From positions 1-7,151 of the forward strand of contig JAUVYQ010000128.1 of assembly GCA_030603035.1 (NCBI GenBank): 7,151 nucleotides of DNA. The letters are read 5' to 3'. Position 1 is the first letter of the stretch. The number at the start of each line of letters is the position of its first letter. Below, in pieces: positions 1,024 through 7,148 of this stretch. The translations under genes and the position numbers were made by a program. A model generated the notes under the pieces. The model was not told where the DNA came from, searched no databases, and saw nothing but the letters and a program-made list of their open reading frames with translations. The DNA is from Phycisphaerae bacterium (GTDB lineage Bacteria > Planctomycetota > Phycisphaerae > Sedimentisphaerales > SG8-4).

Positions 1024-3120
1024 TTACGTTTCCTTCAATGCCTGAACCAACTGCGGCACCGTATCTTCAACATTCCCGACAATATAATAATCGCACTGCT
1101 TGAATATCGGTGCGTTTGGGTCGCTGTTGACAGCGACAATGGTCTCGGTGTTTGCAATGCCTATCATATGCTGAATCGCACCGGATATTCCCAGGGCAAT
1201 GTAAATTTTCGGCCCGATGGAAGTGCCGGTTTGGCCGACCTGGTGTACGCGTTCGATGAAGCCCTGCTCCACCGCCGCACGCGAAGCCCCTCTTTCAACT
1301 TGCGTATCTAACTTTTTGCTCAAGCCGGCACAAAGCAAGCCCACCAGCCGTTCATAGTTGTCCCGGTTCTGCATACCCTTACCGCCGCTGACAACCAAGT
1401 CGGCACCAAAGTTCACCTCGCCGGTTCCCAGCTCTGTTTTTATAATTTTCAGACTAACATCGTCTTTGGTAAGCTCGACCTTGTGTTTGATGACTTTGCC
1501 CGTTCTTGAGTCATCGGGGGGTAGTCTCTTCATAACGCCCGGCCTTGCCGTAGCCGTTTGCGCCTTTGAATTTTTCGTGCAGATAGTAGCCATAACGTTT
1601 CCGCCCAGTGCCGGCCGGGTCTGCAGAAGGATACCTATCAGGCCTTTTCGTGAGCTGTCCTTGATATCCAGTCCGGTGCAGTCGGCGGTCAGTCCGCAGC
1701 CAACTCTGTATGAGACCATCGGCGCCAGCATTCTACCCTGCGGAGTCGCAGCATACAGAACGATTTGCGGCCAGTATGTGGCTATTGCATCGGCAATGGC
1801 TTTGCGATGTGCAGCCGGGTCAAATTCGCTGAGCAGCTTATCCTCGATGATGTAGATGTTGTCTGCGCCGGCGGCGATTAATTCTTTTGCCATTGGCTCG
1901 GCCTCGCAGCCGGCTACTGCAACGCCTACTTTGGTTTCCAGAGAATCCGCAAGCGCGCGGGCCTTGCCGATAAGCTCGAACGTCGCCGGATGTACCGCAC
2001 CATCGCTGTGTTCGGCGACGACCCAAACCTCGCCCTTATAGCTCGGCTCGGTCAACTGCAAACCGTTTATCATATCCTCCAATGCCTTCTTATGGAAATG
2101 CTTGCCTGCAGCAGCAAGAATCTTTTCCTTACTCGCATCATCAAGCCGGCTAATCTCGGTAATGCCGAGCTCCTTGAGCTTGCCGGCTAAAATTTCAAAA
2201 TCTTCGTTTTCCTTTTTTGTCCCCTCGAAGCTTCTGTCAAACAAACTCGCTCGCTTGCCCGGCAAAATGTAGCGGCTTGTTTGAATATCGGCGTCCTCAC
2301 CGGCCTCGGCGCCGCTGCTCTTGAATTGGTCAACAAGCAGCTTGGCTAATGCTTTTGCATCGCCGACCTGCTCGCATTTTCTGGTGCTTTTGCCCGGTGG
2401 AAAAACCCGTATTACAGTCGTCTTCGAGCCGGTAACACCAATGTGGGTGGCTTTGATGTCATCGCTGCCCCAGCGAATAATCTCCATCCTGTTTGCCTGT
2501 CGCGTTGCCGCAAATGTTGCAAACACAGGATACTCATACTTGGCAACGGTTATTACCGCCGGCAGCTCCCTGGCGGCAACCACCTGGCTGCCGCCGCTGA
2601 TAATGCGCGTGAATTCAAACCGCTTGTTCCTGAATTTGGCCCTGGTGACGTAAGCTATGCAGGGCAGACCCAGTTCTTCAGCGATTTGCGGCGGCACCTG
2701 GGCCGTGTCGCCGTCCACCGACTGCATCCCGCAAACCACATAATAATCGCTGTCTTCTTTAAGAATTTCTCTGACTATTTTTCTAACAGCAAATGCTAAC
2801 GGATTTGCCGTTGCCACGGTATCTGCCCCGGCCAGGGTTCTGTCGGTCAGCAGCACCACCGTATCGGCGCATCGGCTCAGGCCATATCGCAGGACCTCCT
2901 CAGCCATCGGCGGTCCCATAGTTAAGGCAATGATTTTGCCGCTCTTGTCACCGCTGTCCCGCCTCATCTGATTTGCAAAAGCCAGTGCCTGCGAGTCCAG
3001 CTCGTTGATTACGCTGGCCAGCCGGCTTCTAATCAGCGTGCCGGTCTCGAGGTCAAACGCATTGTCGGTGATTTGCGTTACGTCAGGAACCTGTTTTACC
3101 AGAACTATGTAGTTACTCAT
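1024..3120 (-). CDS. Fused electron transfer flavoprotein, beta and alpha subunits in one chain
   Basis: This 698-residue protein joins two subunits that are normally separate. Residues 1-265 are EtfB: the start MSNYIVLVKQVPD is canonical and a nucleotide-binding loop DGDTAQV lies at 136-142. Residues 266-362 are a charged linker with helical, HhH-like character (KLKELGITEISRLDDASKEK). Residues 363-698 are EtfA, ending in the FAD domain with SR at 613-614, VGQTGT at 628-633 and the signature YIALGISGAIQH at 640-651. The protein carries electrons from flavin dehydrogenases, here probably to the ETF-QO encoded next on the same strand. The DGDTAQV loop resembles FixA and bifurcating EtfB proteins more than the AMP-binding loop of classical ETF, so electron bifurcation cannot be excluded; this comparison is from memory. 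The ATG at 3120 fits the family start, though no strong Shine-Dalgarno is visible. No frameshift is seen; the fusion is one continuous frame. Confidence 0.95.
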   Translation of the reverse strand: MSNYIVLVKQVPDVTQITDNAFDLETGTLIRSRLASVINELDSQALAFANQMRRDSGDKSGKIIALTMGPPMAEEVLRYGLSRCADTVVLLTDRTLAGADTVATANPLAFAVRKIVREILKEDSDYYVVCGMQSVDGDTAQVPPQIAEELGLPCIAYVTRAKFRNKRFEFTRIISGGSQVVAARELPAVITVAKYEYPVFATFAATRQANRMEIIRWGSDDIKATHIGVTGSKTTVIRVFPPGKSTRKCEQVGDAKALAKLLVDQFKSSGAEAGEDADIQTSRYILPGKRASLFDRSFEGTKKENEDFEILAGKLKELGITEISRLDDASKEKILAAAGKHFHKKALEDMINGLQLTEPSYKGEVWVVAEHSDGAVHPATFELIGKARALADSLETKVGVAVAGCEAEPMAKELIAAGADNIYIIEDKLLSEFDPAAHRKAIADAIATYWPQIVLYAATPQGRMLAPMVSYRVGCGLTADCTGLDIKDSSRKGLIGILLQTRPALGGNVMATICTKNSKAQTATARPGVMKRLPPDDSRTGKVIKHKVELTKDDVSLKIIKTELGTGEVNFGADLVVSGGKGMQNRDNYERLVGLLCAGLSKKLDTQVERGASRAAVEQGFIERVHQVGQTGTSIGPKIYIALGISGAIQHMIGIANTETIVAVNSDPNAPIFKQCDYYIVGNVEDTVPQLVQALKET

Positions 3121-3483: not shown

Positions 3484-4110
3484 ATGGCAGATTTGAAAAC
3501 ATTGGCTGACGCAATTATCAAAGGTGACCAGAACACCGCCGTAGAAATTACAAAAACAGCCCTTGATGAAGGCACAGCAGCTAAAAGTGTTCTCGAAGAG
3601 GGTTTAATTGCAAGTATGGACGTTGTTGGCGGCCGTTTCAAAAAGAACGAGATTTACATACCTGAGGTGCTTATTGCCGCCCGAGCAATGAAAATGGCGA
3701 TGGAAATCCTTGAGCCGGAACTTGCTAAGGCCGGCGTCAAGCCGGTCGGAAAGTTCCTGATAGGGACCGTGCAGGGTGATCTGCACGATATCGGTAAAAA
3801 TTTAGTGGCAATGATGCTAAAAGGAGCGGGCTTTGAAGTTATCGACCTCGGTGTCGATGTTTCGGCTGAAAAGTTTGTCGAGCAGGCCGGCAACGCAGGC
3901 ATTCAGTTGATTGGTATGAGTGCGCTTTTAACTACGACAATGCCCGGTATGGAGAAAACCGTAAAGGCACTGAAGGACGCCGGCGTTTCAGTCAAGATTA
4001 TGATAGGCGGCGCACCGGTAACTCAGGGTTATGCCGACAGGATTGGTGCCGACGGCTATGCCCCCGATGCCGCTTCCGCCGTCGATATGGCCAAAACACT
4101 CATCGCATAA
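3484..4110 (+). CDS. Corrinoid (B12-binding) protein, MtbC/MtmC type
   Basis: The 208-residue product has the two-part layout of methyl-carrier corrinoid proteins. Residues 1-85 form the helical cap domain, with EEGLIASMDVVGGRF and the EIYIPEVLIAARAM stretch. Residues 88-208 form the Rossmann-like cobalamin domain. The hallmark D-x-H-x-x-G is present as DLHDIG (D99, H101, G104), where the histidine is the lower axial cobalt ligand. S146-A-L148 and G175-G176 supply the other cofactor contacts. Family length is about 200-220 residues, so the protein is complete. Such proteins shuttle a methyl group between a substrate-specific methyltransferase (for methylamines, methanol, methoxy compounds or betaine) and a second methyltransferase. 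Neither partner, nor a reductive activator, is in the window, so the substrate cannot be named. The start is fixed by the GAGGAG site. The closely related cap and B12 domains of methionine synthase occur in much longer proteins. Confidence 0.93.
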   Translation: MADLKTLADAIIKGDQNTAVEITKTALDEGTAAKSVLEEGLIASMDVVGGRFKKNEIYIPEVLIAARAMKMAMEILEPELAKAGVKPVGKFLIGTVQGDLHDIGKNLVAMMLKGAGFEVIDLGVDVSAEKFVEQAGNAGIQLIGMSALLTTTMPGMEKTVKALKDAGVSVKIMIGGAPVTQGYADRIGADGYAPDAASAVDMAKTLIA

Positions 4111-4188: not shown

Positions 4189-4329
4189 TGCCACCAAGGC
4201 GCAAAGACACCAATCCTGGTTATATTTGTTTTTTAACTTTTAACTTCTTTGTGCCTTCGTGTCTTTGTGGCTATTTAACTATGCGAAAGATAAAGAATCA
4301 AAATTTAGCGCAATTGTTGGTGCAGCTTC
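4189..4329 (+). repeat. 141-bp direct repeat, left copy
   Basis: This copy is identical to 5014-5154 at every position except 4277 (A here, G at 5102), a constant offset of 825. It contains an 82-bp inverted-repeat element (4190-4271), a 9-nt spacer and the first 49 nt of the sigma-like gene from its ATG (4281). Matching stops at 4330. The two copies bracket the hicBA module. The left edge is within a base of the start of the inverted-repeat element, which may mark the recombination boundary. Confidence 0.95.
4190..4271. repeat. 82-bp imperfect inverted-repeat element, copy 1
   Basis: The ends are GCCAC and GTGGC. The first 24 nt match the reverse complement of the last 24 nt at about 18 positions, around an AT-rich centre. 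It resembles a widespread 'CCACCAAGGC...CTTTGTGGC' class of small non-coding repeat that I recall from environmental genomes. It carries no gene and sits 9 nt before an ATG. A second copy is at 5015-5096. Confidence 0.65.
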
Positions 4330-4349
4330 AAAAATTCTTTTGTCGATAA
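4281..4349 (+). pseudogene. Beheaded 5' stub of the sigma-like gene
   Basis: The ATG and first 49 nt are the same as those of the intact gene at 5106. The frame then runs into inserted DNA and stops at 4347-4349 after 22 codons, the last six of them foreign. It is either the original gene start, cut off by arrival of the toxin-antitoxin module, or a by-product of duplication. It overlaps the 3' end of hicA in antisense. There is no Shine-Dalgarno, as in the intact copy, so translation is uncertain. Confidence 0.75.
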
Positions 4350-4535
4350 ACCCGCTTGTTTGATTATATGCCTCAATGTCCCTTTTTTTAGATCTCTATT
4401 ATGCCAGGGGATTGTTACTGCGATATTTTCTTTTAGATAAATCCGATGGCCTCCTTTCTGGCGAACAAAAGAAAAACCCGCCTTTCCCAAAGCTTTAGCT
4501 ACTTCTCTTGGTTTTAAGGCGGGTAGTTTACGCAT
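4305..4535 (-). CDS. hicA: HicA-family mRNA interferase toxin
   Basis: The 76-residue product has the small dsRBD-like HicA fold: LKPREVAKALGKAGF, then the catalytic motif QKGGHRIY with the active histidine at H30, then the strand IAVTIPWHN and the helix GTLRHIIKQAGLSTKEFL. HicA cleaves mRNA and arrests growth when free of HicB. It follows hicB by seven nucleotides on the same strand, so the two are co-transcribed. Its last seven residues, KLHQQLR, and its stop codon lie inside the 141-bp repeat and are the reverse strand of the sigma-gene start. The native C-terminus was therefore replaced or extended at the junction. The core domain and histidine are intact, so activity is plausible. The gene and its surroundings look more AT-rich than the neighbours, which fits horizontal arrival. 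Confidence 0.93.
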   Translation of the reverse strand: MRKLPALKPREVAKALGKAGFSFVRQKGGHRIYLKENIAVTIPWHNRDLKKGTLRHIIKQAGLSTKEFLKLHQQLR

Positions 4536-4542
4536 AACGAGA

Positions 4543-4794
4543 CTAAGCCTTTACTTGAACAGGGGCTATGATCACTCCCTTTTCCTCTCTTAATATTTCC
4601 TCTTTCTTTGTTCGCATCACCTCTAAGTATAAACTGGCTGCTTCTTTGATATTTTTTAGAGCTTGCTCAAAGGTGTCTCCTTCAGAGATACAACCAGGTA
4701 AAGAAGGAATGGTAACGGTGTAGCCTCCTACTTTTATGTCAGGCTCAAAAATAGCAGTATATTGATAAACTTTTTTCTCTAAAACTTTTTTCAT
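4543..4794 (-). CDS. hicB: HicB-family antitoxin
   Basis: The 83-residue product shows the HicB partial RNase-H-like fold: the strand YTAIFEPD, then GGYTVTIPSLPGCISEGDTFEQAL, with the typical 'P-x-LPGC-x-S-x-G-x-T' motif near residues 30-42, and a following helix, NIKEAASLYLEVM. HicB binds and blocks HicA and often represses its own operon. The C-terminal tail (GVIIAPVQVKA) is short and no clear ribbon-helix-helix or HTH domain is visible, so DNA binding may be weak or need the complex. The gene comes first in the pair. The ATG at 4794 has an AGAGGT ribosome site six nucleotides upstream. The divergent intergenic region on its other side leads to the sigma-like gene. Confidence 0.93.
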   Translation of the reverse strand: MKKVLEKKVYQYTAIFEPDIKVGGYTVTIPSLPGCISEGDTFEQALKNIKEAASLYLEVMRTKKEEILREEKGVIIAPVQVKA

Positions 4795-4800
4795 AATTTA

Positions 4801-4806
4801 ACCTCT
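4801..4806 (-). promoter_or_regulatory. Ribosome-binding site of hicB
   Basis: On the minus strand it reads AGAGGT, six nucleotides before the ATG at 4794. This contrasts with the sigma-like gene, which has no such site. Confidence 0.7.
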
Positions 4807-4813
4807 GACCATA

Positions 4814-4842
4814 ATTTCAAAAGAACAACAGAACAGTGTCAA
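4814..4842 (-). promoter_or_regulatory. Second possible hicBA promoter
   Basis: On the minus strand a perfect -35 TTGACA (4837-4842) lies 17 nt from a weaker -10 TGAAAT (4814-4819). Transcription from it would start almost at the ribosome site, so it is less convincing than the upstream candidate. Confidence 0.35.
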
Positions 4843-4848
4843 GCTAAT

Positions 4849-4878
4849 ATTATAGCATAGACATAAGGACAAAAACAA
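4849..4878 (-). promoter_or_regulatory. Likely hicBA promoter with overlapping dyad
   Basis: On the minus strand a perfect -10 TATAAT (4849-4854) lies 18 nt after TTGTTT (4873-4878). The -10 is embedded in an imperfect palindrome with GCTA/TAGC arms (4843-4856), a plausible operator for the HicB or HicAB complex. The leader would be about 45-50 nt. Confidence 0.55.
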
Positions 4879-4953
4879 GCAAAAACTTTTCTTTTTCTTG
4901 AAAAACGCTATCTTTTTGCGCCCAATTTGGTAAAATGGACACCTGGTCATAAT

Positions 4954-5010
4954 GGGAAAAATCAAAAATTAAAAAGCAAAATGCAAAATGACAAATCAAA
5001 ATTCAAGAAG
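4954..5010. repeat. A-rich low-complexity run
   Basis: The run is built from variants of CAAAAATTAAAAA and AAAATGCAAA. The same word AAAATGCAAA appears on the opposite strand just after the EtfB-EtfA stop (about 1014-1024), which suggests a dispersed non-coding family. No coding or structural signal is seen. Confidence 0.45.
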
Positions 5011-5013
5011 TTC

Positions 5014-5154
5014 TGCCACCAAGGCGCAAAGACACCAATCCTGGTTATATTTGTTTTTTAACTTTTAACTTCTTTGTGCCTTCGTGTCTTTGTGGCTATT
5101 TGACTATGCGAAAGATAAAGAATCAAAATTTAGCGCAATTGTTGGTGCAGCTTC
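5014..5154 (+). repeat. 141-bp direct repeat, right copy
   Basis: This is the partner of 4189-4329, differing only at 5102. It supplies the 92 nt before the ATG and the first 49 nt of the intact sigma-like gene. The near identity means the duplication is recent or kept uniform by gene conversion. Confidence 0.95.
5015..5096. repeat. 82-bp imperfect inverted-repeat element, copy 2
   Basis: This is the same element as 4190-4271, ending in GTGGC nine nucleotides before the ATG at 5106. It forms the immediate upstream region of the sigma-like gene, so it may have become its leader or promoter. Confidence 0.65.
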
Positions 5155-6827
5155 GATTTACGCCCCAGAAGCAGCGCCGAAAACAGCTCGATGCCATCGA
5201 AAAACTCTTTGCGATTATCGATAGGGACAGGGAATATCCCTTTGACTTTGTCTGCTTTCGTATCACGGGTTTTCACCCCGCCCCTCCGAGGGGCGGGGTT
5301 CACCCTAAGGGCGCAGCCGAGCAGCAGCTCATAAAAGGAGATGAGCTTGCAGAGGACCTGCGCATCTTCATCGCTAAGCTGAGCGGCCAGCTTGCTCGAC
5401 CCGTTACTGAGCAACGTGAAAAAGTTTATACCATTGAAGAGCTTGCAGCAGCCCTCGGCGTTTCAACAAAAACAATTCATCGCTGGCGAAAACGAGGCCT
5501 GATTGCCCGAAAGTTTATCTTTGACGACGGCAAAAAACGTTTCGGCTTCTCGCAATCGGCCGTTGATAAATTCATCAAGGCAAATCCCGGCCTTATTGCC
5601 AGAGCGAAAATCTTTACGCGACTGACAAACAAACAAAAACAACTGATTATAAGACAGGCCGGGGCGCTTGCGGCCAAAACCACAATGAGCCGCTATCAAA
5701 TCATAAACCAGATAGCAGCTCAAATCGGAAAGGCCCACGAAACCATCAGGTACACAATCGCCAGCTACGAAAAGTCCAACCCCGATAAGCCTATTTTTAA
5801 GGAGCCGCCCGGCGTAATCAGCCCGGCCCAGGCCGCCGAACTCTACAAACTCTTCAAACAAGGCACCAGCGTCAAAGAGTTGATGAGACGCTTCAATCGC
5901 AGTAAAAGCTCGATATATCGGATTATAAATCGACGAAGGGCAAAGGCGCTTCTGGCCAGAAGAATTGAATTCATCGCCAGCGACGAGTTTCTCCAGGAAG
6001 GCATCAGAGAAAAGATGCTCGCAAAACCAATGAAGATGGACAAGCCCGTCTCTGCTAAAAAGCTTGAACCATTCGAATTGGTCGGCGAGCATCTCCTGCC
6101 CGAATACCTGCAGAAATTAAAGGAAACCCCTGTCCTGAATCGGGAACGCGAAGTCGAGCTGTTCCGCAGATATAATTACCTGAAATACCTCGCTTGCATA
6201 ACCAGGGCGGGTATGAAACCCGCTCGTGTCTCGGGTTCTCGGATAAACGAAATAGAAAACTATCTCGCCGAGGCCGAGACAATCAAAAAAATGATAATCG
6301 AGGCAAATCTGCGACTCGTCGTCAGCATAGCAGGCAAACACGCCGCCGGCGGGACTAATTTTCTGGAATTGGTAAGCAAGGGTAATTTCGCACTGACCAA
6401 AGCGGTCGAAGAATTCGATTATACAAGGGACATTCGATTCAGCAAGCACGCCTCATTGAACATAGCCAAAGAATATGCAAAGGTGTCCGGTAAAAGTACA
6501 GAGCTTACCAGGGAAAAAGTAGGTTCATTGGCAAATATCCAGCGCTATTTGAGAACCACAGAGGCCGCAGATTTTGCAGCTATCGAACGAGCGCGCCAGA
6601 GCTTAGTCCAGGTCATCAAGGATGAGCTCAACGAGCGCGAGCAGTATATAATCTTAAATCATTTCGGCCTGGTCGGCTCACCTATAAAAAAGAAGACAAA
6701 GACCTTGAAGCAAATCGGCGAAGATTTGGACCTCGGCAAAGAAAGAGTCCGCCAGATCGAACTGATTGCCCTGCAGAAGTTGAGACACTCCCTCAGTATC
6801 GAAGAATTCGAGCTGCTGACCGGCTGA
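5106..6827 (+). CDS. Sigma-70-family protein with N-terminal HTH modules, divergent region 2
   Basis: The 573-residue product starts with a basic helix. A MerR/excisionase-type HTH follows (about 106-160: YTIEELAAALGVSTKTIHRW), then two more HTH-like units (about 195-220, IAAQIGKAHETIRYTI; and 238-283, VKELMRRFNRSKSSIYRII). The sigma part has region 1.2 (about 330-362), region 2 (395-458: IIEANLRLVVSIAGKH, FLELVSKGNFALTKAVEEFDY) and a well-kept region 4 (500-562: LKQIGEDLDLGKERVRQIELIALQKLR). Region 3 is short. It should bind RNA polymerase core and choose promoters. The melting residues, T-Y-x-x-W-W in RpoD, read K447, H448, L451 and N452 here, so it may be a specialised or weak initiator. 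I recall this architecture from planctomycetes. The ATG at 5106 is preferred to the GTG at 5076 because the duplication preserves it and the family-like sequence begins there. No Shine-Dalgarno is seen. Confidence 0.88.
   Translation: MRKIKNQNLAQLLVQLRFTPQKQRRKQLDAIEKLFAIIDRDREYPFDFVCFRITGFHPAPPRGGVHPKGAAEQQLIKGDELAEDLRIFIAKLSGQLARPVTEQREKVYTIEELAAALGVSTKTIHRWRKRGLIARKFIFDDGKKRFGFSQSAVDKFIKANPGLIARAKIFTRLTNKQKQLIIRQAGALAAKTTMSRYQIINQIAAQIGKAHETIRYTIASYEKSNPDKPIFKEPPGVISPAQAAELYKLFKQGTSVKELMRRFNRSKSSIYRIINRRRAKALLARRIEFIASDEFLQEGIREKMLAKPMKMDKPVSAKKLEPFELVGEHLLPEYLQKLKETPVLNREREVELFRRYNYLKYLACITRAGMKPARVSGSRINEIENYLAEAETIKKMIIEANLRLVVSIAGKHAAGGTNFLELVSKGNFALTKAVEEFDYTRDIRFSKHASLNIAKEYAKVSGKSTELTREKVGSLANIQRYLRTTEAADFAAIERARQSLVQVIKDELNEREQYIILNHFGLVGSPIKKKTKTLKQIGEDLDLGKERVRQIELIALQKLRHSLSIEEFELLTG
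5275..5299. repeat. GC-rich palindrome inside the sigma-like gene
   Basis: Two perfect 12-bp arms, ACCCCGCCCCTC and GAGGGGCGGGGT, flank a single C at 5287. The palindrome is read in frame as roughly HPAPPRGGVH (residues 57-66), a proline/glycine-rich stretch unlike its surroundings and lying before the first HTH. It looks like a small palindromic element inserted without breaking the frame. Confidence 0.75.
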
Positions 6828-6843
6828 TTATTGATGGGTTTGA

Positions 6844-6947
6844 TTGGGTTTGTTTTCACCAAGTGTCCAATTGGATTTATTTTCGTAATCCTTTGTTAAA
6901 TAGAAGTTTAAGTTCATTCTGGCTTTTCGGAAATTGGGTTTGTTTTG
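6844..6947. repeat. AT-rich 104-bp repeat, copy 1
   Basis: By eye it is identical to 7045-7148. It contains a perfect palindrome TCCAATTGGA (6866-6875) and starts and ends with TTGGGTTTGTTTT. It begins 16 nt after the sigma-like stop codon. On the minus strand the shared ends read KTNPI/KQTQF-like, a signature I recall from planctomycete intergenic repeats. It is non-coding. Confidence 0.9.
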
Positions 6948-7044
6948 GCTTTGTTTTTTCATAGCCCCTATCCGCATTTATCTTCATAATCCTTTGTAAA
7001 TACACACTTTGCATCAATTTTACTCTCTGGCAAATTGGCTTTGT
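6948..7044. repeat. Divergent middle unit of the AT-rich array
   Basis: This roughly 97-bp unit aligns with its neighbours through shared words (GGCTTTGTTTT, ATAATCCTTTGT, CAAATTGG) but differs at many positions and lacks the TCCAATTGGA palindrome. The array is therefore A-B-A: two identical units around a diverged one. Confidence 0.65.
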
Positions 7045-7148
7045 TTGGGTTTGTTTTCACCAAGTGTCCAATTGGATTTATTTTCGTAATCCTTTGTTAA
7101 ATAGAAGTTTAAGTTCATTCTGGCTTTTCGGAAATTGGGTTTGTTTTG
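7045..7148. repeat. AT-rich 104-bp repeat, copy 2
   Basis: This copy repeats 6844-6947 at an offset of 201. The array may continue beyond the window, since the copy ends three bases from the edge. No gene is visible from 6828 to the end. Confidence 0.9.

What the first reader, a model, noticed from the sequence alone, without database searches (positions are those of the whole stretch)
4189..5154. A toxin-antitoxin pair held between 141-bp duplicated starts of a sigma-like gene
hicBA sits between two 141-bp direct repeats with one mismatch, each carrying an inverted-repeat element and the first 49 nt of the downstream sigma-like gene. The duplication is far longer than a normal target-site duplication, and no transposase is present. 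The layout fits integration of a hicBA circle by homology, or a repair duplication. Recombination between the repeats would delete 825 bp, lose the toxin-antitoxin pair and leave one intact gene start. The toxin-antitoxin pair could therefore select against loss of its own insertion and fix the new upstream region of a transcription factor.
Basis: partly seen in the sequence, partly recalled or inferred. Interest (0 to 1): 0.75.

Follow-up and report, generated by a model that had tools for sequence, protein, structure and literature searches.

The report
Toxin-antitoxin pair beside duplicated gene start
In an uncultured planctomycete a HicBA toxin-antitoxin pair sits between two copies of the start of a sigma-factor-like gene, and related genomes show other toxin-antitoxin genes lying between two versions of a housekeeping gene's end or start, which suggests that such pairs can enter chromosomes by homology at gene ends without a transposase.

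Summary
The repeat is real: 4189-4329 and 5014-5154, 141 nt, one mismatch, 825 bp apart. Each copy is a dispersed palindromic repeat (R2) plus 49 nt of the sigma-like gene. Pfam confirms HicA and HicB.

A congener, L002, has hicBA (98.3% DNA identity) at the same place without this repeat but with a different flanking duplication. There hicA keeps its native end (LHKD). In the window the new joint lies in a 10-bp match between hicA and the gene start, and HicA ends LHQQLR. hicBA is younger than the species split: 1 of 58 versus 92 of 502 fourfold sites differ.

The pattern recurs in this family: direct repeats straddle 14 of 88 hicB hits and 11 of 58 parE hits, against 0 of 59 acetyltransferase controls. 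About two thirds of these repeats are gene ends or starts, whose copies differ mainly synonymously (pooled pN/pS 0.22, 13 alignments).

Best reading: homology-driven, transposase-free arrival of DNA carrying the TA pair and a gene terminus. For the window itself a local gene-conversion patch remains possible.

The parts
3484..4110 (+). corrinoid (B12-binding) protein gene, the conserved left neighbour
   Evidence: Pfam PF02310 and PF02607; same neighbour in L001-L004
4111..4188 (.). left flank X, containing a dispersed repeat (CGCAAAGATCGCAGAGTCCGCAGAG type); no copy of P seen here
   Evidence: 1, 1, 2 and 5 matches in the genomes of L001-L004
4189..4329 (+). left copy of the 141-nt repeat: R2 (about 4189-4272) plus the 49-nt sigma gene start (4281-4329)
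   Evidence: 140 of 141 identical to 5014-5154
4305..4535 (-). hicA toxin gene; its 3' end (4305-4329) lies in the left repeat; protein ends LHQQLR in place of native LHKD
   Evidence: PF07927, 69.1 bits, cut-off 27; native end in L002, P0121 and P0122
4320..4329 (.). 10-bp match GTGCAGCTTC shared by the native hicA end and the sigma gene start; the novel joint
   Evidence: the only 10-bp match among 65,949 position pairs examined in the two regions
4543..4794 (-). hicB antitoxin gene
   Evidence: PF15919, 48.2 bits, cut-off 27
4887..4959 (+). P: conserved upstream element of the sigma-like gene (TTTTTTGCGC..AATTTGGTAAAATGGACAC), presumed promoter and leader
   Evidence: one match in the genomes of L001 and L003, two in that of L002, none in that of L004; by pattern also upstream of the orthologue in L005, L009, L011, L016 and L057
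4960..5010 (+). R1: A+T-rich dispersed repeat
   Evidence: 28, 23, 14 and 9 matches in the genomes of L001-L004 (lower bounds for the first two, whose candidates were capped at 40)
5014..5154 (+). right copy of the 141-nt repeat, attached to the intact gene
5106..6827 (+). sigma-70-like gene with extra helix-turn-helix domains (573 aa), with orthologues in many Phycisphaerae
   Evidence: Pfam Sigma70_r2 and r4, HTH_17; relatives

Best explanation
hicBA was added beside the sigma-like gene by homology-directed, transposase-free integration. DNA carrying hicA, hicB and the 5' region of the sigma gene (P, R1, R2 and the first 49 nt), from a congener with an L002-like arrangement, was joined end to end at the 10-bp match GTGCAGCTTC between the hicA 3' end and the gene start. 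A single exchange within R2 plus the gene start then placed it in the chromosome. The product reads: left flank, R2 + gene start, hicA-hicB-P-R1, R2 + gene start, intact gene. Shown here: the repeat, the 10-bp joint, the altered HicA end, the recent common origin of hicBA in two species, and the recurrence of TA genes between two gene termini in the family. Inferred: the circular or end-joined intermediate, the single exchange, and the direction of transfer.
For: The left joint lies exactly in a 10-bp match with the native hicA end seen in L002. The native HicA end is LHKD in L002, P0121 and P0122. hicBA differs at 1 of 58 fourfold sites between window and L002, against 92 of 502 in three neighbouring genes (Fisher 3e-4). 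R1+R2 (145 of 146) and the gene start (48 of 49) are as close as hicBA, while the rest of the gene is 91.3%. Window, L001, L002 and L003 are nearly equidistant, and L001 and L003 have no hicBA at the site. In the family, direct repeats straddle 14 of 88 hicB and 11 of 58 parE hits against 0 of 59 GNAT controls (TA versus GNAT Fisher 2e-4; hicB versus 11 of 236 other small frames, 0.0017). Repeats include ends of purH, pheS, dnaE-type, uvrC-like, class II tRNA-synthetase and DHH genes, and starts of dihydroorotase-like and yacP-like genes. The two termini differ mostly synonymously (13 alignments pooled, Sd 77 of 235.5, Nd 58 of 796.5). In published E. coli conjugation experiments, 56 of 60 clones gave the duplication PCR product, 14 sequenced clones had duplications of 109-950 bp, and the authors attributed them to single crossover of a partly degraded circle (PMC3240628, passages).
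Against: L002 shares the hicBA position without the 141-bp repeat. P, which would have travelled between hicBA and R1, is only about 87% identical to L002 (92 of 106 with the stretch before it), significantly lower than R1+R2 (Fisher 3e-5). The model needs a recipient in which R2 followed the left flank with no P, although P is conserved in relatives. The two window copies are too alike to show two separate histories, unlike most other family cases. Not every straddling repeat is a gene terminus (4 of 14 for hicB and at least 2 of 8 for the first parE set are not). No circular form was seen; plasmids gave no match and phage or viral relatives are distant.
Confidence: 0.5

Rival explanations
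1. hicBA was already in place in an L002-like arrangement. The left copy arose later by ectopic gene conversion or template switching: copying began in an R2 repeat to the left of hicA (25 nt identical) and stopped at the 10-bp match in the hicA end, replacing about 150 bp by 141 bp.
For: L002 has TGCCACCAAGGCGCAAAGACACCAA left of hicA and GTGCAGCTTC at the hicA end, 153 bp from the start of the first to the end of the second; R2 is a dispersed repeat; the window's left copy begins TTTTTGCC, as many dispersed R2 members do, unlike the right copy; the two window copies share two differences from L002.
Against: It does not explain why hicBA itself is far more similar between the species than neighbouring genes, nor the family-wide pattern. 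The left flank of the window differs from that of L002 altogether.
Confidence: 0.33
2. Insertion with long target duplication in the sense of Nobusato et al. 2000: hicBA inserted at a wide staggered break, and both copies of the target come from the recipient.
For: Similar outline: an addiction-type gene pair between long direct repeats of adjacent DNA, no transposase. Described for restriction-modification genes of Helicobacter pylori (passages in PMC1643837).
Against: In the window the left copy lies outside P-R1 while the unit between the copies contains P-R1, which a plain target duplication would not give. In other family members the copies differ mostly synonymously and no premature stop was printed, and in the dnaE-type case the orthologues match either copy about equally at the differing sites (18:14 and 14:17 in the two closest), which fits two lineages better than one duplicated target.
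Confidence: 0.1
3. The left copy is an assembly or library chimera with a 10-bp microhomology.
For: Probably a short-read metagenome contig (inferred; the source is not told); chimeric molecules often join at microhomology (recalled).
Against: The copies differ at one base, with the left one carrying the base found in L002. The same type of arrangement occurs in other contigs of the family.
Confidence: 0.05

Closest known systems
Insertion with long target duplication (Nobusato, Uchiyama, Ohashi, Kobayashi 2000; not read here, known from recall and from passages in PMC1643837)
   Same: A selfish, addiction-type gene pair lies between long direct repeats of the adjacent gene region, without a transposase.
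   Different: Here toxin-antitoxin genes in planctomycetes instead of restriction-modification genes in Helicobacter; in the family cases the two termini look like orthologues from different lineages and not like one target duplicated.
Homology-facilitated illegitimate recombination and single-crossover integration of trimmed circles (PMC3240628, passages seen)
   Same: Homology at one end, short microhomology or free joining at the other; duplications of 109-950 bp of the target were seen in E. coli conjugation.
   Different: An experimental system with an engineered plasmid; here natural and only inferred.
Integrase-driven elements that restore the 3' end of a gene (for example phage-type integration in icd; recalled)
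   Same: The element brings its own version of a gene terminus, with mostly synonymous differences (recalled).
   Different: No integrase model among the window's Pfam hits; gene starts are affected as well as gene ends; the gene-terminus repeats are about 0.5-1.4 kb apart.
Chromosomal hicAB type II toxin-antitoxin modules
   Same: HicA and HicB pass their Pfam cut-offs and are adjacent on one strand.
   Different: HicA carries a foreign C-terminus read from the antisense strand of a sigma-like gene start.

Membership tests
HicAB type II toxin-antitoxin system | HicA toxin domain | tested here: met
   PF07927 69.1 bits against cut-off 27; no NCBIfam model matched HicA or HicB at E 0.001
HicAB type II toxin-antitoxin system | HicB-type antitoxin adjacent on the same strand | tested here: met
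   PF15919 48.2 bits against cut-off 27; frames 4305-4535 and 4543-4794, both minus
HicAB type II toxin-antitoxin system | toxicity neutralised by the antitoxin | not testable with these tools
   needs expression in a laboratory strain
Insertion with long target duplication | insert between long direct repeats of adjacent DNA | tested here: met
[quoted passage not shown]
   L001 and L003 have no hicBA and one gene start, but their flanks differ and lack R1 and R2
Insertion with long target duplication | both copies derive from the recipient's own target | tested here: inconclusive
   window copies nearly identical; in other family cases the copies differ mainly synonymously, against this
Transposon or insertion sequence | transposase in the unit | tested here: not met
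   no transposase model among the Pfam hits of the scanned proteins
Transposon or insertion sequence | short target-site duplication (a few to about 14 bp; recalled) | tested here: not met
   141-nt repeats
Integrase-driven genomic island | integrase gene in the element | tested here: not met
   none among the Pfam hits in the window

The most novel reading that the evidence does not exclude
Small toxin-antitoxin modules of several unrelated families (HicBA, ParE-type, BrnT-type) spread between planctomycete species as short DNA units whose homology arm is the terminus of a conserved housekeeping gene. Integration by homology at that terminus leaves the gene whole, with one terminus from each lineage on either side of the TA pair. 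This would be a transposase-free, integrase-free route by which chromosomal TA pairs move.
Probability: 0.4. Interest if true: 0.8.

Novelty: new variant of a known kind. Interest (0 to 1): 0.6.

Why it matters
[quoted passage not shown] Paired gene termini with separate histories on either side of a TA module would be a readable scar of such moves. The idea becomes testable by counting and dating scars in any well-sampled clade, and by integration assays in laboratory strains. It would also explain small C-terminal changes in toxins, such as LHKD to LHQQLR here, as by-products of the joining.

Tried and rejected
A plain short target-site duplication: rejected by length and order. A plasmid or phage carrier of this hicBA: no plasmid match; phage relatives below 60% identity, 70 records; viral-contig relatives at most 57%, 26 loci. 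An RNA element or tRNA target: no Rfam match at the gathering scores, no tRNA. The idea that the 141-bp repeat is the scar of hicBA's first arrival: weakened by L002. A strong promoter call for P: the consensus scan did not list it, so P is called an upstream element on conservation alone. Which dnaE-type copy is foreign in L346: not decided; of eight genomes compared, six lean to the attached copy (18:14, 16:10, 14:11, 16:8, 16:9, 13:9), one is even (13:13) and one leans to the remnant (14:17).

Weak points of the survey. The parE and GNAT samples are part of what was listed: 40 fetched plus 18 untruncated loci out of 30 for parE (58 usable); 40 fetched, 39 usable, plus 20 untruncated loci out of 30 for GNAT (59 usable). 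One GNAT place (G022:C346) was both given as L330 and fetched as L420; by its coordinates it ends 147 bp from the contig end, so both rules leave it out. Of 94 hicB hits, 90 were entered and 88 had 400 bp on both sides. The four left out were the L002 hit itself, two at contig starts, and one in a 605-residue frame. hicB hits reach down to E near 8e-4 and some contain a stop codon.

By eye, 10 of the 14 hicB cases are gene termini (L197, L203, L211, L213, L217, L218, L221, L224, L256, L279); L276 is intergenic, L208 unresolved, and L251 and L254 are simple or dispersed repeats. The automatic rule also gave 10 of 88, but with L251 and L254 in and L211 and L256 out. For parE, 6 of the 8 in the first set are gene termini (L341, L346, L350, L364, L369, L375); L353 and L378 look like dispersed repeats. 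Of the 3 in the second set, L310 looks like a gene end; L288 and L309 were not resolved. The purH scar occurs in three genomes and the uvrC-like one in three, so events are not independent and the Fisher values overstate. Random positions gave 36 of 1507. Among other small frames in the same loci 11 of 236 are straddled; one of the seven that the automatic rule called terminus matches is a BrnT toxin gene itself. hicB and parE do not differ from each other (p 0.62).

L251 and L254 were dropped before the synonymous count and L211 was added by hand. L310, L369, L375 and L256 were looked at later and are not in the pooled figure; in the gene's frame they give Sd:Nd 6:1, 4:3, 3:1 and 3:1. The excess of synonymous change is weak in L364 (ratio 0.63), L350 (0.50) and the brnT case of L341 (0.51, not pooled), and L224 has no difference to count.

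Full report
Observation. The window holds a direct repeat of 141 nt (4189-4329 and 5014-5154) with one mismatch, 825 bp apart. Each copy contains a palindromic element, R2, and the first 49 nt of a 573-residue sigma-70-like gene (5106-6827). Between them lie hicA and hicB on the minus strand, both above their Pfam cut-offs. The unit between the copies also contains P (4887-4959), a conserved upstream element of the sigma gene, and R1 (4960-5010). R1 and R2 are dispersed repeats in relatives: R2 has 17, 9, 2 and 18 matches and R1 has 28, 23, 14 and 9 matches in the genomes of L001-L004 (lower bounds where candidates were capped). P occurs once in the genomes of L001 and L003, twice in that of L002 and not in that of L004, and a pattern for it matches upstream of the orthologous gene in five further loci.

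Relatives at the same locus. One scan of bacterial and archaeal genome contigs with a 16-row alignment gave 79 loci, the best of 112 relatives, nearly all titled as planctomycetes. Of these only L002 encodes a HicA or HicB relative at E up to 1e-4 (71 of 79 loci have more than 700 bp upstream). L001 and L003 have no hicBA, R1 or R2 there; P stands directly before the ATG. L002 has hicBA in the same place and orientation at 98.3% DNA identity, but its left flank is not the gene start. It carries the native hicA end and, further left, a second copy of P-R1-R2start; the two P-R1-R2start copies are 94.6% identical over 147 columns. So both lineages have hicBA between duplicated pieces of the same upstream region, but different pieces.

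The joint. The native hicA end and the sigma gene start share GTGCAGCTTC. The window's left joint lies exactly there, and no other pair of positions in the compared stretches has a match that long (1 of 65,949). As a result the toxin ends LHQQLR instead of LHKD; LHKD is seen in L002 and in the two best-scoring database proteins P0121 and P0122. The last codons of the toxin are thus the antisense of the sigma gene start.

Age. Between window and L002, hicBA differs at 1 of 58 fourfold sites and three neighbouring genes at 92 of 502 (Fisher 3e-4). Window, L001, L002 and L003 are nearly equidistant at 18-21% of fourfold sites. hicBA therefore looks younger than the split. R1+R2 (145 of 146) and the gene start (48 of 49) are equally close, while P with the stretch before it (92 of 106) and the rest of the gene (91.3%) are not. 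Such a mosaic fits repeated recombination between congeners. [quoted passage not shown]

A family-wide pattern. Looking for other hicB loci between repeats gave unexpected cases (6 of 54 loci in which hicB was found), so I surveyed the usable hicB hits (89 genomes, the GTDB family of L002's genome). Direct repeats of at least 35 nt, at most 2 kb apart, straddle 14 of 88 hits, against 36 of 1507 random positions in the same loci. With the same rule, parE-type toxin genes give 8 of 40, acetyltransferase genes 0 of 39 and other small frames 11 of 236. With further untruncated loci the totals are parE 11 of 58 and acetyltransferase 0 of 59. On inspection 10 of the 14 and 6 of the first 8 are gene termini. 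For hicB: the end of purH in three genomes, the end of pheS, the end of a PEGA-domain gene, the start of a dihydroorotase-like gene, the start of a yacP-like gene, and ends of three other frames (Pfam for one of each named kind). For parE: ends of a DHH gene, a DNA polymerase III alpha-type gene, a class II tRNA synthetase and, in three genomes, a uvrC-like gene. In L341 the same DHH gene also has its start duplicated around a BrnT toxin gene.

Two histories. If the second terminus were a relic of a simple duplication it should gather amino-acid changes and stops. Pooled over 13 alignments, 77 of 235.5 synonymous sites but only 58 of 796.5 nonsynonymous sites differ, a ratio of 0.22; about 143 nonsynonymous differences would be expected if one copy were neutral and the other evolved at a ratio of 0.1. 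No premature stop appears in the remnants printed; three alignments contain gaps (L350, three positions; the brnT-side L341 and L344, one each) and I did not settle whether L350's lie in the frame. In purH the distal copy of G019 is no closer to its own gene (86.8%) than to the genes of G066 and G022 (86.8% each); the distal copies of G066 and G022 are closest to their own genes (83.0% and 84.9%). In the dnaE-type case the two closest orthologues match either copy about equally at the differing sites (18:14 and 14:17), though more distant ones lean to the attached copy. Both termini thus appear to have evolved, at least for a good part, within working genes in different lineages. Weaker individual cases are named under Tried and rejected.

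Mechanism. The simplest scheme is that a TA pair arrives on DNA that also carries the terminus of a conserved gene, and one exchange in that terminus leaves the order terminus - TA - terminus. Single crossover of trimmed circles gave just such duplications (109-950 bp) in E. coli conjugation experiments (PMC3240628, passages). For the window the unit would be hicA-hicB-P-R1-R2-gene start, closed at the 10-bp match. The main rival is a conversion patch between R2 copies that ended at the same 10-bp match on an hicBA already present. The low identity of P and the need for a recipient without P speak against the first; the recent common origin of hicBA and the family pattern speak for it.

Recombination between the copies would remove 825 bp including P, not hicBA alone. 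Whether the TA pair keeps the locus from being lost is untested. L001 and L003 do not look like products of that deletion, since they lack R1 and R2 and keep P.

Literature. Five searches on TA integration, repeats and target duplications listed no paper that, from title or abstract start, describes TA modules between divergent housekeeping-gene termini; listings shown were 8 of 8, 10 of 38, 19 of 19, 10 of 13 and 2 of 2 papers. The concept of insertion with long target duplication is known for restriction-modification genes (passages in PMC1643837; reference lists of PMC2654758 and PMC3874152; the original was not read). Passages of PMC4615327 on mobile restriction-modification and toxin genes were also seen. 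PMC7167474 (passages) says the integration mechanism of TA systems is unelucidated.

Noticed in passing
5274-5300: A 27-nt palindrome (CACCCCGCCCCTCCGAGGGGCGGGGTT) is inserted in frame in the sigma-like gene (HPAPPRGGV). Among the 79 loci a pattern for it matches only L001 and L002, and the same kind of palindrome is dispersed in all four relatives' genomes searched (forward/reverse matches 42/53, 5/5, 8/8, 7/5; reversed control 0).
   Followed up: partly
6835-7148: Three 113-nt direct repeats downstream of the sigma-like gene, outer copies 98% alike, middle copy 63%; related sequence in L003 at 7209-7456.
   Followed up: no
L001:2450-3930 and L003:2425-3930: About 1.5 kb of partly similar sequence between the corrinoid gene and P, with no match in the window; contents not analysed.
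   Followed up: no
L341:4800-7485: One DHH-family gene has its 3' end duplicated around a parE-type gene and its 5' end duplicated around a BrnT toxin gene.
   Followed up: partly
P0002 with P0121, P0006 with P0185: The sigma-like and Hic proteins of each pair list the same longest-contig length and source (5068 jgi; 6462 ena), so hicBA may stand beside this gene in further metagenome contigs; these could not be fetched.
   Followed up: no
1024-3120: A 698-residue electron-transfer flavoprotein frame on the minus strand with two ETF-domain stretches and an ETF alpha FAD-binding domain, which looks like a fusion of both subunits.
   Followed up: no
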